From Paludibacteraceae bacterium (GTDB lineage Bacteria; Bacteroidota; Bacteroidia; Bacteroidales; Paludibacteraceae): DNA of 64,000 bases. Below are positions 145-64,000 of this stretch, one piece after another. The position numbers were made by a program, and so were the translations under genes. Position 1 is the stretch's first letter; every line of letters starts with the position of its first letter. Where the stretch lies: positions 1 to 64,000 of the forward strand of contig JAFVTU010000020.1 in the NCBI GenBank assembly GCA_017503075.1. The letters are read 5' to 3'. The notes under the pieces were generated by a model. The model searched no databases and had not been told where the DNA came from. It worked only from the letters and a program-made list of their open reading frames with translations.

Positions 145-233
145 TCTTTTCCCTCTCTTATACCTTCCCCTATTCTACCGACCGACGACCGAGAGAACTC
201 CGACAGAACTCCGACTCAACTCCCTGCCCACAA
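145..233. repeat. Degenerate tandem array, 11-bp period
   Basis: Consecutive 11-mers such as GAGAACTCCGA, CAGAACTCCGA and CTCAACTCCCT follow one another without gaps. The period extends upstream into a C/T-rich part with weaker identity. The array is bracketed by two 19-bp direct repeats 115 bp apart. It belongs to the same style of array seen at 8608, 10816, 19740, 27224, 43087 and 58157. Confidence 0.6.
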
Positions 234-307
234 AAAGTACTTTTATTAAGATTACCTTCTTTCTAAGTTCCAAACAGTAGGCACTCAGTGCCGTATACTA
301 AACCAAT

Positions 308-25879: not shown

Positions 25880-27193
25880 TTACTTTGCACGAATAAATAT
25901 TTGTACAGGTGTGCCATTAAAATCCCACCATTCACGTAGTTTGTTCTCCAAAAAACGGCGATAAGGCTCTTTCACATATTGTGGCAGATTGGCGAAGAAC
26001 ACAAACGTAGGAATTTGTGTATTAGGCAATTGCGTACAATACTTGATTTTGATATACTTGCCCTTCGTTGCTGGTGGGGGATAGTTCTCAATCAATGGCA
26101 AGAAGCGTTCGTTGAGTTGCGCGGTAGGCACTTTGCGTTGCTTGTTCTCATACACGTGCAAAGCGGTCTCCATCACCTTGAAAATGCGTTGTTTCGTCAG
26201 AGCAGAAGTAAAGATAATAGGAAAGTCCTTGAATGGTGCAATACGCTCGCGGATAGCACGTTCATAACCTTTGATGTCCGCATTGGTCTTACTCTCAATC
26301 AAATCCCATTTGTTAACGCAGACTACCAATCCCTTTTTATTCTTTTGCACCAAAGAATATATATTCAAGTCTTGCGCTTCAATACCACGTGTAGCATCAA
26401 TCATCAATATACACACATCCGAGTTCTCTATCGCACGAATACTACGTACTACTGAATAATACTCCAAATCTTCATTCACTTTGGCTTTTTTGCGAATACC
26501 CGCAGTATCAACGAGATAAAAATCTTTACCAAACTTGTTGTAACGAGTGTAGATACTATCACGTGTGGTGCCAGGTATGTCGGTTACAATAGTGCGTTCT
26601 TCGCCGATAAACGCATTCAATATGCTACTTTTTCCTGCATTTGGACGACCTACAATAGCAAAACGTGGCAATTCTTCCAAATCTTCGCCAGCTACGGTGT
26701 CTTTGAAACGGCTGCAAATCTCATCCAGCAAATCGCCTGTACCTAATCCATTCTCTGCCGACAAGATATATGGCTCGCCCAAACCAAGCTTATAGAACTC
26801 TGGCGCACCATATTGTTGATCAAATTGATCCACTTTGTTTACTGCCAACACGGTCTCTTTCTTGGCTTGACGAAGTAGGTGAGCTACCTCCATATCAAAT
26901 TGCGTTACACCCGCGTTCACATCCACCACCAAGAGAATCACATCCGCTTCCTTGATGGCGAGGTTCACCTGACGGTTGATCTCGCTCTCAAACGTATCAT
27001 CGGAGTTAACTACCCATCCGCCAGTATCAATGACGGAAAATTCTTTGCCACACCATTCGCTTTTGCCGTATTGGCGGTCACGAGTAGTGCCTGCTGTATC
27101 ATTTACTATTGCTCGACGTGTTTTGGTCAAGCGGTTGAATAGGGTCGATTTCCCGACATTAGGACGACCCACTATCGCTAAAATATTTGCCAT
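25880..27193 (-). CDS. der: Ribosome-assembly GTPase Der (EngA)
   Basis: 437 residues with two tandem GTPase domains: the first with GRPNVGKST (8-16) and NKVD, the second with GRPNAGKSS (about 181-189), DTAGIRKK and NKWD. A C-terminal KH-like domain follows (from about 350). Der is essential for 50S subunit maturation. Its motifs are complete. The upstream spacer is almost wholly an 11-bp array. Confidence 0.95.
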
Positions 27194-27223
27194 AGTATTT
27201 TTGTTTTTTTATAATTCTTAGTT

Positions 27224-27342
27224 GCCTATTATATGCCTATTGTTTGCCACCTATTTGCCACCTGCCTTCATAGAGACCTCATAGGAACTTCATAGGGACT
27301 TCATCGGAACCTCACCGAGCCTTTACCGTGACTTCTTCGTGC
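27224..27342. repeat. 11-bp array, about eleven units
   Basis: The clearest array in the window. GCCTATTATAT, GCCTATTGTTT, GCCACCTATTT at the left pass into CCTCATAGGAA, CTTCATAGGGA, CTTCATCGGAA, CCTCACCGAGC and CTTTACCGTGA, always at 11-bp steps over 119 bp. It fills the gap between der and slyD. The motif GGAACTT-CATAGGGACTT is also found near 8755 in GGGAACTTATGGGACTCT. Confidence 0.7.
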
Positions 27343-27352
27343 CATCTACGGA

Positions 27353-27931
27353 CTAACAATTGCAGTTTCCGCAGCCTCCTTCTTGGCAATCACCGCCACA
27401 GTCTCCGCCATTGCAATGACCGCCACAGCCGCCACAACCGCGATGGTGCAGTGCTTTCAACTCACCTTCGGTCACGTCGCGAAGATTCAATACCTTGCCC
27501 ACAAAGTGCAAGTTCTCGCCTGCCAATGGGTGGTTGAGGTCAATGGTCACGTTATCTGCGGTGATCTCTGCTATCTGTGCATTGATGACTTGTCCATCTG
27601 CTGTGTTCATAGGTACGATAGCACCTACATATACGCGTTCACTATCGAACTCGCCATCGCCATTGTAAAACATCTTCTTATCCAAGGTCAGTACGCCTTC
27701 ATCGTCATACTCGCCATATGCGTCTTGGCAGGCGATGCGGAAATCAAATGCTTCGCCCTCTGCCAAACCTTCCATTTGTTGCTCAAAGGCAGGCAACATC
27801 ATGCCTTCGCCGTGGCAATATACCAATGGAGCTTCAGCGGTAGCTTTCTCCATCAATTCTTCTTGTCCATTTTCGCCATCTACGTACAAATCGTACTCCA
27901 GCGTTACTACTTTCTTTGCTTCAATTTTCAT
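27353..27931 (-). CDS. slyD: FKBP-type peptidyl-prolyl isomerase SlyD
   Basis: 192 residues. The N-terminal half is a SlyD-type FKBP with an IF (insert-in-flap) domain; LVYCHGEGMMLPAFEQQMEG and DLNHPLAGENLHFVGKVL are typical. The C-terminus is a Cys/His-rich metal-binding tail with eight cysteines in the last 31 residues (HHRGCGGCGGHC, then CGGDC and CGNCNC). It acts as a folding helper and can hold nickel or zinc. The tail is a normal SlyD feature but is especially cysteine-rich here. Confidence 0.9.
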   Translation of the reverse strand: MKIEAKKVVTLEYDLYVDGENGQEELMEKATAEAPLVYCHGEGMMLPAFEQQMEGLAEGEAFDFRIACQDAYGEYDDEGVLTLDKKMFYNGDGEFDSERVYVGAIVPMNTADGQVINAQIAEITADNVTIDLNHPLAGENLHFVGKVLNLRDVTEGELKALHHRGCGGCGGHCNGGDCGGDCQEGGCGNCNC

Positions 27932-43063: not shown

Positions 43064-43086
43064 CCACCACTATGCTACACTACAAT

Positions 43087-43119
43087 TTAGTTAGTGATTA
43101 GTTAGTGATTAGTTAGTGA
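43087..43119. repeat. Perfect 3 x 11-bp tandem repeat
   Basis: TTAGTTAGTGA is repeated three times exactly. It lies between the kinase stop and the gdhA promoter. It is the only error-free 11-bp array in the window. Confidence 0.85.
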
Positions 43120-43189
43120 TTCTGATAAACCTACCGAAAGGTTTGAGAAATAATTAAGCAAAACTATTGTAGAATTGCAAAAAAAAATG

Positions 43190-61804: not shown

Positions 61805-62908
61805 ATGAAAAAGTTGTTTTTTATTGCAGTTTCCATGCTGTTATCCACAGCCGCTTGGGCGGAGACCGTCCCTGCTACCGACTCTCGCATCACTTTCGTC
61901 GGTCGCTCTGTCGTTGAGAACGATTCCTATCGTTTTGATTTTCCATCCACCTACTTTCGCGTAGCGTTTACAGGCAAGAAACTCTCCATGCGTGTGACTG
62001 ATACCAAACGCAATTTCTACGCTGTTTGGCTAGATACTCCTACTTCTGCTGAGCCTACTCATGTGATTGAAGTAAAGGGTAATGATACTATTATTAATTT
62101 GATAACTTTGGCAGATACTAAGAAGTCGAAAATCAAAGAGCATCAGGTAGTTATACAACGTCGTACGGAAGCTAACTGCGGTACAACAACTGTTAAGGAA
62201 TTCATTACCGATGGTAAGTTCCTTCAAGCGGAACCATTAAAAACTCGTCAAATCGAGTTCATAGGCGATAGCTATACTTGTGGCTATGGCGTAGATGCCC
62301 CATCTCGTCGAGATCCTTTCAAAGACGAAACTGAGAATGCTTCACGTACCTATGCTAGTATCGTTGCGCGCTATTTCAATGCAGACTATTTCACCATTGC
62401 TCACTCTGGTCGCGGTATCACTCGCAACGCAGGTTCGGGTGTTCCTTGGGAGGTCATGACTGATATCTATCAATATACCCTTGATCGCGACTCACTCTCA
62501 CGTTGGAATGTAGCAAATTCTGATTTTCGCCCTGCCATGACGGTTATCTACTTGGGAGCCAATGACTTCTCATCGTCTATGGCACCAGCGTATAACAAGT
62601 TTGAGAAGGATTATCTCCGCCTATTGGGCTATGTCAAGGCCAATTATGGTGAGAATCATCCTATCTTGTGCGTTTCTACCAAGGCGCATGACTATTTGTT
62701 TACCTACGTAAAACAAGTGGTTAAGACTTGTGGGTTGAAGAATGTAGAGTATTTGGGCTATTTCCCTGCTCAACATCACGATACCGACGAGGACCTGGGT
62801 GCGGGTTGGCATCCTAACTACAATGGTCAAAAGAAACTAGCTTTCTCTATCATACCATACATCGCTACCATGACTGGTTGGGGATTGCAGGATGCTATTG
62901 TAGAATAA
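61805..62908 (+). CDS. CE2-type carbohydrate esterase, copy 2 of 3
   Basis: 367 residues from the ATG at 61805, right after the AATTGAC words. A signal peptide (1-18, AAWA-ET) is followed by a CE2 jelly roll that is about 14 residues shorter than in copies 1 and 3 between MRVTD and FYAVWLD. The SGNH domain has FIGDSYTCGYG, YLGANDF and GWHPNYNGQKKLA. Its substrate may differ slightly because of the shorter loop. It shares near-identical 3' sequence (TGGGGATTGCA) with copy 1. Confidence 0.9.
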   Translation: MKKLFFIAVSMLLSTAAWAETVPATDSRITFVGRSVVENDSYRFDFPSTYFRVAFTGKKLSMRVTDTKRNFYAVWLDTPTSAEPTHVIEVKGNDTIINLITLADTKKSKIKEHQVVIQRRTEANCGTTTVKEFITDGKFLQAEPLKTRQIEFIGDSYTCGYGVDAPSRRDPFKDETENASRTYASIVARYFNADYFTIAHSGRGITRNAGSGVPWEVMTDIYQYTLDRDSLSRWNVANSDFRPAMTVIYLGANDFSSSMAPAYNKFEKDYLRLLGYVKANYGENHPILCVSTKAHDYLFTYVKQVVKTCGLKNVEYLGYFPAQHHDTDEDLGAGWHPNYNGQKKLAFSIIPYIATMTGWGLQDAIVE

Positions 62909-62987
62909 AAGTTTAAAGTTTATGGTTTAAGGTTTAAAGGCGGGGGTCCCTAGCCTTTAACCTCTAACCTTTAACCTCTCATCTAAT
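62909..62987. repeat. GGTTTAAAGG repeats and hairpin before copy 3
   Basis: GTTTAAAGTTTATGGTTTAAGG and the reverse-complement words CCTTTAACCTCTAACC face each other around GGGGGTCCC. GGTTTAAAGGC and GCCTTTAACC form the hairpin. It lies directly ahead of the ATG at 62988. Confidence 0.6.
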
Positions 62988-64000
62988 ATGAAAAAGTCAT
63001 TTTTCTTTCTCCTTAGCCTCATCACCTTATCGCCTCTTTGCCTTATGGCAGAGACCATGCCTGCTAGTGATGCGCGTGTGACCTACGTAGGTCGTACTCT
63101 TGTTGAAGGCACTGACGTGTCTTTCGACTGGACGGGCGTCTATTTCCGCCTTTCTTTCTCGGGCAAGTCATTGACTATGCGTGCCTCTGATACCAAGTGG
63201 GCGGAAAGTCCCGAATGGATGGCCAAGCGTCATAATTACTACAATGTCTGGATTGATGCTCCTATGAGTGCCGAACCTCATCGCATCATCGAAGTGGCTA
63301 GTGCGGACACCGTTATCGAACTGATCGACCTTGATTATCTCAAGGCATCCAAACTCAAACAGCATACTGTCATCGTACAAAAACGTACTGAGGGCGAGCA
63401 AGGCAAGATGACTGTCCATGAGTTTGCCACGGATGCCAAAGGCGCTTTCTACCAAGCTGAACCTATTCGTAAACGCCAATTGGAGTTTATCGGTGCCAGC
63501 TATGACTGTGGTTATGGCGTGGATGACATCAGCCGCTTGGCTAAGTTCACCCCAGAGACCGAGAACGCTTCGCGCTCCTTTTGTGCGATTATCTCGCGCT
63601 ATTTCGATGCGGATTATGTGGTAGTAGCGCACTCGGGTATGGGGGCTGCGCGCAACTATAACTCCAAGTTCGATGGCTATCATATGCCTGACCGCTATCT
63701 CCAGACTTTCGATATGGACTCTACTCAAGCTACTCGCTGGAATGCTGCGGAGTCGGATATCCGTCCTGCATTGACATGTATCTACTTGGGAGGTAATGAT
63801 TTCTCTGTCTCGATGCAACCATCCTACGAGAAGTTCCGCGATGGCTATTATCGCCTAATTCGCTCAATCAAAGATAATTACGGCGAGGATCATCCTGTGC
63901 TCTGCGTATCTAGTAAGGCACATAGTACCTTGCTTGATTATATGCGCGAGATGGTGAATACGTGCCCTATGTCGAATGTACATTTCATGGCGTGTTGTCC
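62988..64000 (+). CDS. CE2-type carbohydrate esterase, copy 3 of 3 (cut by window edge)
   Basis: 337 complete residues before the window ends; the stop is outside. Signal peptide (about 1-21, LCLMA-ET), CE2 jelly roll, SGNH domain. The nucleophile motif reads FIGASYDCGYG where copies 1 and 2 have FIGDSYTCGYG: the serine is kept but the aspartate before it is alanine. YLGGNDF is present. The catalytic histidine lies beyond the window, so activity cannot be judged. Confidence 0.88.
   Translation, partial: MKKSFFFLLSLITLSPLCLMAETMPASDARVTYVGRTLVEGTDVSFDWTGVYFRLSFSGKSLTMRASDTKWAESPEWMAKRHNYYNVWIDAPMSAEPHRIIEVASADTVIELIDLDYLKASKLKQHTVIVQKRTEGEQGKMTVHEFATDAKGAFYQAEPIRKRQLEFIGASYDCGYGVDDISRLAKFTPETENASRSFCAIISRYFDADYVVVAHSGMGAARNYNSKFDGYHMPDRYLQTFDMDSTQATRWNAAESDIRPALTCIYLGGNDFSVSMQPSYEKFRDGYYRLIRSIKDNYGEDHPVLCVSSKAHSTLLDYMREMVNTCPMSNVHFMACC

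What the first reader, a model, noticed from the sequence alone, without database searches (positions are those of the whole stretch)
27224..27342. About eleven units of an 11-bp-period degenerate array between der and slyD
Units of exactly 11 bp run without a gap for 119 bp, drifting in sequence (GCCTATTATAT to CTTCATAGGGA to CTTTACCGTGA) but keeping the spacing. A constant step with a changing word is not what simple slippage leaves. An 11-bp step is close to one turn of DNA, so the array could present one face of the helix to a nucleoid protein or fix a curve. The period is seen directly; the role is inference.
Basis: partly seen in the sequence, partly recalled or inferred. Interest (0 to 1): 0.72.

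Follow-up and report, generated by a model that had tools for sequence, protein, structure and literature searches.

The report
Eleven-base DNA arrays with partner genes
The 11-base-step array between two ordinary genes is one of many scattered copies of a DNA site whose other copies lie right beside genes for an uncharacterised family of small proteins, which suggests a lineage-specific set of matched protein and DNA-array pairs in gut bacteria.

Summary
The array is real: 12 gap-free 11-bp units (27223-27354); 72 of 108 matches at lag 11, reached by 0 of 3000 dinucleotide shuffles. It is not a local oddity: the genome has 13 matching places, and the 12 viewed repeat the same order of words. 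Lag 11 is in excess over intergenic DNA here, in a near relative and pooled over the genus, not pooled over other families of the order.

Copies of the same array lie directly downstream of a ~119-aa orphan gene ("X") in 40 of 40 X loci viewed, against 6% of 978 control genes. Homologous subfamilies carry arrays with other words: family Y has one upstream in 29 of 30 loci viewed; in the own genome 10 of 13 members found have an 11-bp array within 250 bp. Orientation is flipped in 9 of 69 cases, so duplex DNA is probably what is read. The proteins have no convincing match in Pfam, NCBIfam, PHROGs or PDB sequences.

Best reading: the window array is a gene-less member of a site family bound by X, about one unit per helical turn. 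Binding and effect are inferred; mobility is the main rival.

The parts
27223..27354 (-). Whole family-A array, 12 gap-free units of 11 bp. Read on the - strand (slyD towards der) it has the same arrangement as the commoner orientation of arrays behind X genes: array downstream of a stop codon
27311..27354 (-). Head units (on + strand CTCACCGAGCC, TTTACCGTGAC, TTCTTCGTGCC, ATCTACGGACT); the last overlaps the slyD stop
   Evidence: CACCG/TACCG units in other copies
27267..27310 (-). Core word units (on + strand TTCATAGAGAC, CTCATAGGAAC, TTCATAGGGAC, TTCATCGGAAC)
27223..27266 (-). Tail units (on + strand TGCCTATTATA, TGCCTATTGTT, TGCCACCTATT, TGCCACCTGCC), corresponding to AGGTGGnAA-type units of X-linked arrays
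27353..27931 (-). slyD-type gene upstream in the transcription direction (192 aa; flank, not part of the system)
25880..27193 (-). der (flank, not part of the system)
43064..43141 (+). Second 11-bp array in the window, family B (TTAGTTAGTGA, 3 copies), with no partner gene seen here; a similar word (TTAGTGATAAG) stands upstream of the superfamily gene at G000:C7:173627-174010

Best explanation
The array is a gene-less ('solo') member of a dispersed site family whose cognate protein is X, a small orphan protein encoded three times elsewhere in the same genome, each time beside such an array. X belongs to a lineage-restricted superfamily, mostly of ~100-140 aa proteins (two longer ones look fused to an acetyltransferase-like part, recognised from recall). 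Subfamilies have their own 11-bp word, or a 10-bp step in one subfamily. Proposed working: one protein unit binds each 11-bp unit of duplex DNA, so that successive units sit on the same face of the helix and several copies line up along 4-12 turns. The array beside the gene gives self-recognition (own promoter or 3' end), and the solo arrays are further sites for the same protein, organising or tuning intergenic DNA. Shown: array structure, dispersal, gene linkage, subfamily-specific words, free orientation, homology of X and Y. Inferred: DNA binding, one-face geometry, oligomerisation, and any effect on transcription or nucleoid.
For: X loci: a lag-11 array starting within -25 to +162 bp of the stop codon in 40 of 40 viewed (counted); controls, same detector, 60 of 978 downstream and 71 of 978 upstream. 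Y loci: array upstream in 29 of 30 viewed. All 6 superfamily members that two profiles found in 1.26 Mb of two genomes have an array within 180 bp of the open frame. Own genome: 10 of 13 members found have a lag-11 array within 250 bp. X and Y are homologous by profile comparison (prob 97.8, E 8e-13, 114 columns, 22% identity). Words track subfamilies: X-I GAGGTTCCGAT/GAAGTTCCTAT, X-II GAGCATCCGAT, X-III GAGCATATATT, X-IV CAGCATCCATT, Y ATACACGATAG, Z TTGTGCGTCTA, J-type ACGGCAACGAC, B-type TTAGTGATAAG. Strong (E<=1e-15) X-II-word arrays occur in 12 of 28 genomes, each with one such array beside an X place, and in 0 of the other 16. Core logo: A4, T5, G7, A10 in 117 of 117 units while positions 1, 6 and 9 vary (with the bias named above). 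Orientation relative to the gene flips in 5 of 40 X and 4 of 29 Y arrays.
Against: No binding data. The X and Y loci are best hits, one or a few per genome, and many are orthologous, some nearly identical (L298/L300, L303/L305), so 40 and 30 are not independent counts. One Y gene (L292) has no upstream array in 900 bp. In the further 20-locus test 8 had no lag-11 array within 400 bp: six of eight loci of genus g31 and two 103-aa-type genes of the own genome. G041 and G043 have family-A arrays but no X found; G041 seems to be G293, rated 84% complete (same coordinates). Three own-genome members lack an 11-bp array (C11, C20, C30:17550). Partners for array families E/D, G and H were not found. 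Arrays sit in all kinds of gaps roughly in proportion to bases (34 tandem, 27 divergent, 15 convergent of 76), unlike ordinary operators. Lag-11 excess was clear in only 3 of 8 further genomes of the genus. Word-subfamily agreement is partly expected from linkage and kinship.
Confidence: 0.55

Rival explanations
1. Gene plus array is a mobile or selfish module, and the solo arrays are its gene-less offspring (works like REPIN-RAYT). X would recognise the array to help it spread; solos are relics.
For: Dispersed copies, 3-19 hits per genome in 10 of 10 genomes; closely similar X genes with a similar leader stand before different downstream genes (by eye); array present or absent at the same gene pair; at one gene pair G270 has word III and G249 word II in the opposite orientation; hits per genome rise with X copies (Spearman 0.84, solos 0.69, n=10, kinship ignored).
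Against: No terminal inverted repeat or target duplication was noticed (by eye; no systematic search was made); no nuclease or transposase match; no set of acidic or catalytic residues is shared by alignments A1 and A2 (my reading); core units keep invariant positions (biased). Only 42 of 205 gaps could be paired between G000 and G041, one of them with family A, so the lack of a clean insertion there says little.
Confidence: 0.27
2. Neutral tandem growth: slippage in intergenic DNA makes short-step arrays, and gene linkage is hitch-hiking of whole regions.
For: Unit number changes by whole units at slyD-der; 7- and 10-bp-step arrays are also common; some members have no array.
Against: 40 of 40 and 29 of 30 linkage, with differing neighbours, against 6-7% for controls; same word order in non-orthologous copies; invariant positions beside free ones.
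Confidence: 0.08
3. The array acts as RNA (leader of Y, 3' UTR of X) bound by the protein or by a ribonucleoprotein.
For: Many Y arrays sit just upstream of the start codon, some directly after a promoter-like TACCTTTG (promoter box recalled); X arrays start near the stop codon.
Against: Flipped orientation in 9 of 69 arrays; arrays in convergent and divergent gaps; no Rfam match at gathering score in window 20000-64000.
Confidence: 0.06
4. Partition-like or centromere-like system, as ParR on its 11-bp parC repeats.
For: Small protein next to an array of 11-bp direct repeats, as in R1 (PMC9426499, passages).
Against: Many dispersed arrays per genome, mostly without the gene; no match for one Y-type protein in the phage and plasmid collections nor for A2 in viral contigs. 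A ParM-type partner was not looked for.
Confidence: 0.03

Closest known systems
ParR-parC (plasmid R1)
   Same: DNA-binding adaptor protein and a run of 11-bp direct repeats beside its genes; binding seeds a higher-order protein-DNA structure (PMC9426499, passages read)
   Different: One plasmid centromere with an actin-like partner; here many dispersed arrays and diversifying words, and the sequence is not recognised as ribbon-helix-helix
REPIN-RAYT
   Same: Dispersed intergenic repeats plus a cognate gene flanked by the same repeat (PMC3116915, passages read)
   Different: REPs are palindromic and RAYTs are related to IS200/IS605 transposases; here direct repeats, no palindrome seen, no transposase match
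PHO boxes of PhoB/PhoP
   Same: 11-nt direct repeat units, degenerate, varying in number (PMC4415409, passages read)
   Different: There the regulator is a response regulator controlling transcription; here orphan proteins and arrays in all types of gap
TAACTGA heptamer repeats (Beggiatoaceae, cyanobacteria, some Bacteroidetes including Paludibacter)
   Same: Dispersed intergenic direct-repeat sets, function unproven (PMC4679880, abstract and one section read)
   Different: 7-bp step, one word, no linked gene family reported in the parts I read

Membership tests
REPIN-RAYT | Gene flanked by the repeat that is dispersed in the genome | tested here: met
   40 of 40 X loci viewed; solo copies in the same genomes
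REPIN-RAYT | Linked gene is an IS200/IS605-like tyrosine transposase | tested here: not met
   No convincing Pfam, NCBIfam, PHROG or PDB-sequence match
REPIN-RAYT | Repeat is a palindrome, mobile unit an inverted pair | tested here: not met
   Direct 11-bp units in one orientation within an array; no palindromic pair seen in the copies printed (by eye)
ParR-parC | 11-bp direct repeats adjacent to a small protein gene | tested here: met
ParR-parC | ParR family (ribbon-helix-helix) protein | tested here: inconclusive
   No Pfam match; fold prediction unavailable
ParR-parC | ParM-type ATPase partner in the operon | not tested
   Neighbours were not searched for ATPases
PHO box operon control | Sites bound by an OmpR/PhoB-type response regulator at regulated promoters | tested here: inconclusive
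   Arrays occur in tandem, divergent and convergent gaps; regulator not tested
TAACTGA-type heptamer repeats | 7-bp step with the word TAACTGA | tested here: not met
   Step is 11, word different

The most novel reading that the evidence does not exclude
A lineage-restricted superfamily of small proteins that diversify together with their own helically phased DNA words, so that each subfamily owns a separate set of arrays in the same chromosome: a natural, readable protein-DNA recognition code used to address intergenic DNA.
Probability: 0.3. Interest if true: 0.93.

Novelty: categorically new. Interest (0 to 1): 0.83.

Why it matters
If true, a set of matched orphan proteins and DNA arrays, with several subfamilies per genome and many array copies, would be a new kind of gene-site pairing in bacteria. 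It would provide natural series of protein variants with their cognate words, from which a recognition code could be read. It would also turn a class of intergenic repeats usually passed over into testable binding sites.

Tried and rejected
Structured RNA: no Rfam match at gathering score in window 20000-64000, and orientation is not fixed. Coding repeat: an 11-bp step is not a multiple of 3 and the array lies between genes. Lag-20 signal: I take part of it for the spacing of Bacteroidetes promoter boxes (recalled, by eye). Apparent replacement of array A by other families at C10:64267 and C1:41896 in G041: withdrawn as clean cases because the right-hand neighbour differs, so these look like synteny breakpoints. 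Gap comparison G000-G041: 42 of 205 gaps could be paired; two pairs carry 11-bp arrays in both and two more in G041 alone; too few for a turnover rate. Partner genes for families E/D, G and H: none found by clustering neighbours. Phages, plasmids, viral contigs: no relative of one Y-type protein or of A2. Phylum-wide search with the Y profile: 1 of 395 genomes (own only) at E<=1e-5. Weak library matches I set aside: Pfam DUF7848 (best E 0.0036, 3 of 22 X proteins), PHROG 4628 (E 0.006), PDB none better than 0.58. Literature: searches returned nothing; some searches listed only the analogues and off-topic papers.

Dropped rows: L256 (31-aa fragment) and L259 (copy with a stop) were left out of the 40 X loci; L260, L262, L264, L266-L268 were left out as the same places as loci; L005 duplicates L004. 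One search reported X places in 72 of 300 genomes and Y places in 87 of 300 (its list was cut); only the 30 loci fetched from each were examined. In one search arrays were gathered by similarity to the window array and the three best-matching units of each were used, which favours conserved units; its controls include the few superfamily genes of the sample. In one search the arrays of minus-strand hits were printed unturned, so its column table is not used.

Full report
Observation. The 119 bp between der and slyD show 72 of 108 matches at lag 11, 54 of 97 at lag 22 and 42 of 86 at lag 33. None of 3000 dinucleotide shuffles reaches 72; their maximum is 46. Written in rows of 11 the array is 12 units without a gap, 27223-27354. 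The units fall in three groups: TGCC-type, TCAT-type and CACCG/TACCG-type.

Dispersal. A search of the own genome (G000, 2.06 Mb, 30 contigs) with the array gives 12 places at E<=0.001 and 13 at E<=0.01. The 11 others were printed and by eye keep the same order of groups in the 11-bp frame; the thirteenth was not viewed. Two of the places (C29 and C13) are identical including the flanks printed, perhaps one region assembled twice. Relatives found through slyD are mostly MAGs titled Paludibacteraceae or Bacteroidales, many from herbivore gut samples. The ten genomes searched together have 3-19 hits each, 90 in all, some of them pieces of one array. Of 40 genomes drawn as relatives by the tool itself, one (G005) had a match at E<=0.001.

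Same locus in relatives. Of 39 slyD relatives viewed (61 fetched), the family-A array follows slyD in L044, L045, L046, L047, L056 and L057. It is absent, with gaps of 35-53 bp to der, in L048, L049, L051, L052, L053 and L055. L050 has a 7-bp-step array there. The L044 gap is 22 bp, exactly two units, longer than the window gap.

Genome-wide test. In 461 kb of the own genome 25 lag-11 arrays were found, against 5 at lag 12 and 1 at lag 13 (but 37 at lag 7 and 16 at lag 10); one second-order Markov sequence gave 0 at lag 11. G041 gave 64 in 800 kb, with 10 at lag 12 and 0 at lag 13. The lag-11 excess over intergenic DNA was z 10.1 in G000, 18.8 in G041, 7.6 pooled over ten other genomes of the genus, and 1.2 pooled over ten genomes of other families (independence assumed). 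Within the genus pool it was 3 or more in 3 of 8 usable genomes, so the arrays are not equally common everywhere. Arrays fall in tandem, divergent and convergent gaps about in proportion to bases: 34, 27 and 15 of 76, with 13 more of 89 inside or across called frames. Many words exist besides that of the window, several of them at more than one locus.

Partner gene X. Three of the own-genome places lie beside copies of one small gene. A protein search of ten genomes found 17 copies (one with a stop) plus a 31-aa fragment, in 8 of 10 genomes. Its relatives occur in 72 of 300 genomes of the family, all but two of the 72 in the own genus. I examined 40 X loci with 40 distinct proteins, dropping repeats of the same place, one fragment and one broken copy. 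All 40 have a lag-11 array starting between 25 bp before and 162 bp after the stop codon. Many of the loci are orthologous between species, so 40 is not a count of independent events. Among 978 control frames of at least 100 aa, with the same detector, the rate is 60 downstream and 71 upstream. In four X subfamilies the core word differs but keeps the frame: GAGGTTCCGAT/GAAGTTCCTAT, GAGCATCCGAT, GAGCATATATT, CAGCATCCATT. Head (GGTGA-type) and tail (AGGTGGnAA-type) units recur in most of them (by eye).

Partner gene Y and others. Arrays of word ATACACGATAG stand beside a second small gene, Y, related to X by profile comparison (prob 97.8, E 8e-13 over 114 columns). Of 30 Y loci fetched, 29 have an array upstream of the start; L292 has none in 900 bp. 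A profile scan of 1.26 Mb found six members, all six with an array within 180 bp of the open frame. I then fetched 20 more loci chosen from the Y search (one from the X search) before looking at their flanks: 12 of 20 have a lag-11 array within 400 bp (one at the detector's threshold, one at 373 bp with a threshold one nearer, one mixed with a 10-bp step). The eight misses are L365, L366, L367 and L374 (one subfamily), L369 and L370 (7-bp array), all of genus g31, and the own-genome 103-aa genes L362 (none) and L363 (10-bp step). Four loci outside the own genus do carry arrays: L372 (g48), L373 (g43), L368 and L371 (g31). A phylum-wide search with the Y profile found the family in 1 of 395 genomes, the own one. 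In the own genome 13 members were found (11 plus the X genes at C1 and C27); 10 of 13 have a lag-11 array within 250 bp, and C11, C20 and C30:17550 do not. Word families and subfamilies pair as follows: A with X, C with Y, F with Z, I with a second Z-type, B with the C7 gene, J with the MAQAELNITID type, and a 10-bp step with the 103-aa type.

Trans pattern. Arrays with the X-II word (E<=1e-15) occur in 12 of 28 genomes. In each of the 12 one array lies beside an X place, and seven of the 12 also have copies (ten in all) with no X place near; the other 16 genomes have none at this threshold. X-III-word arrays at the same threshold occur in 11 of 28 genomes, ten of them with an array beside an X place; the eleventh, G294, has one near a contig end. 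Hits per genome rise with X copies (Spearman 0.84, solos alone 0.69, ten genomes, kinship ignored). One gene pair carries word III in G270 and word II, turned round, in G249; arrays L355 and L356 mix two words.

Reading. Orientation relative to the gene is reversed in 5 of 40 X arrays and 4 of 29 Y arrays, which argues for duplex DNA rather than RNA. In 117 core units of 39 family-A arrays positions A4, T5, G7 and A10 never vary, while positions 1, 6 and 9 do (arrays were collected by similarity and the three best-matching units of each were used, which favours conserved units). A site read by a protein once per turn explains these facts best. Binding is not shown. The main rival is a mobile gene-array module like REPIN-RAYT, which the dispersal, the changing neighbours and the copy-number trend also fit. 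The two could both be true.

Known systems. ParR of plasmid R1 needs at least two 11-bp repeats of parC for binding (PMC9426499, passages). PHO boxes are 11-nt direct repeat units (PMC4415409, passages). REPs flank their RAYT gene and are dispersed (PMC3116915, passages). TAACTGA repeats are dispersed 7-bp sets also found in some Bacteroidetes, among them Paludibacter (PMC4679880, abstract and one section). Each shares one aspect; the features that could be tested rule out REPIN-RAYT and the heptamer class as filed. The ten library searches listed no description of this pairing; most subscription papers are not in that library, and a search by protein sequence in the literature was not possible. 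The rating 'categorically new' rests on that and on the missing family matches.

Noticed in passing
Own genome and G041; e.g. window 62895-62996, 1972-2013: Abundant 7-bp-step intergenic arrays (TTCATAA, CTTTAAA and others), 37 at lag 7 in 461 kb, with no clear partner gene; one 99-aa superfamily member (L389) has only 7-bp arrays beside it.
   Followed up: partly
L361 (= L383), L363: A 103-aa subfamily is followed by a 10-bp-step array (TATAGGATGG) and then by another small gene that looks like a further member.
   Followed up: partly
L375, L376: Superfamily domain fused to what looks like a GNAT acetyltransferase (276-283 aa; recognised from recall, not by a search), with an 11-bp array upstream.
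   Followed up: no
L355, L356: Hybrid arrays in which units of two X-type words follow each other in one 11-bp frame.
   Followed up: no
L061, just after slyD: A more distant relative, with another neighbour than der, carries what looks by eye like an 11-bp-step array with the word AGTCCTATGCA after slyD.
   Followed up: no
C28:192985-193215, C1:147119, G041 C2 and C4: A conserved leader (CCCCTCCGACGGCAAGGAGGAG...) recurs before Y genes and elsewhere; possibly a structured leader. No Rfam search was made on it.
   Followed up: no
G000:C29:35252 and C13:5864: Identical array and flanks on two contigs; the MAG is rated 5.5% contaminated, so perhaps one region assembled twice.
   Followed up: no
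G000 C1:131084, 138883, 36268: 22-bp-step intergenic repeats around GTTCGC...TTCACGAAA; at two paired gaps (C1:130986, C1:138865) present in G000 and not in G041.
   Followed up: no
window 161-238; G000 C1:195072-195257; G041 several: Array families E (ACCAAGGA) and D (ACCGACCGAGAG) repeatedly occur side by side as one long element; partner unknown.
   Followed up: partly
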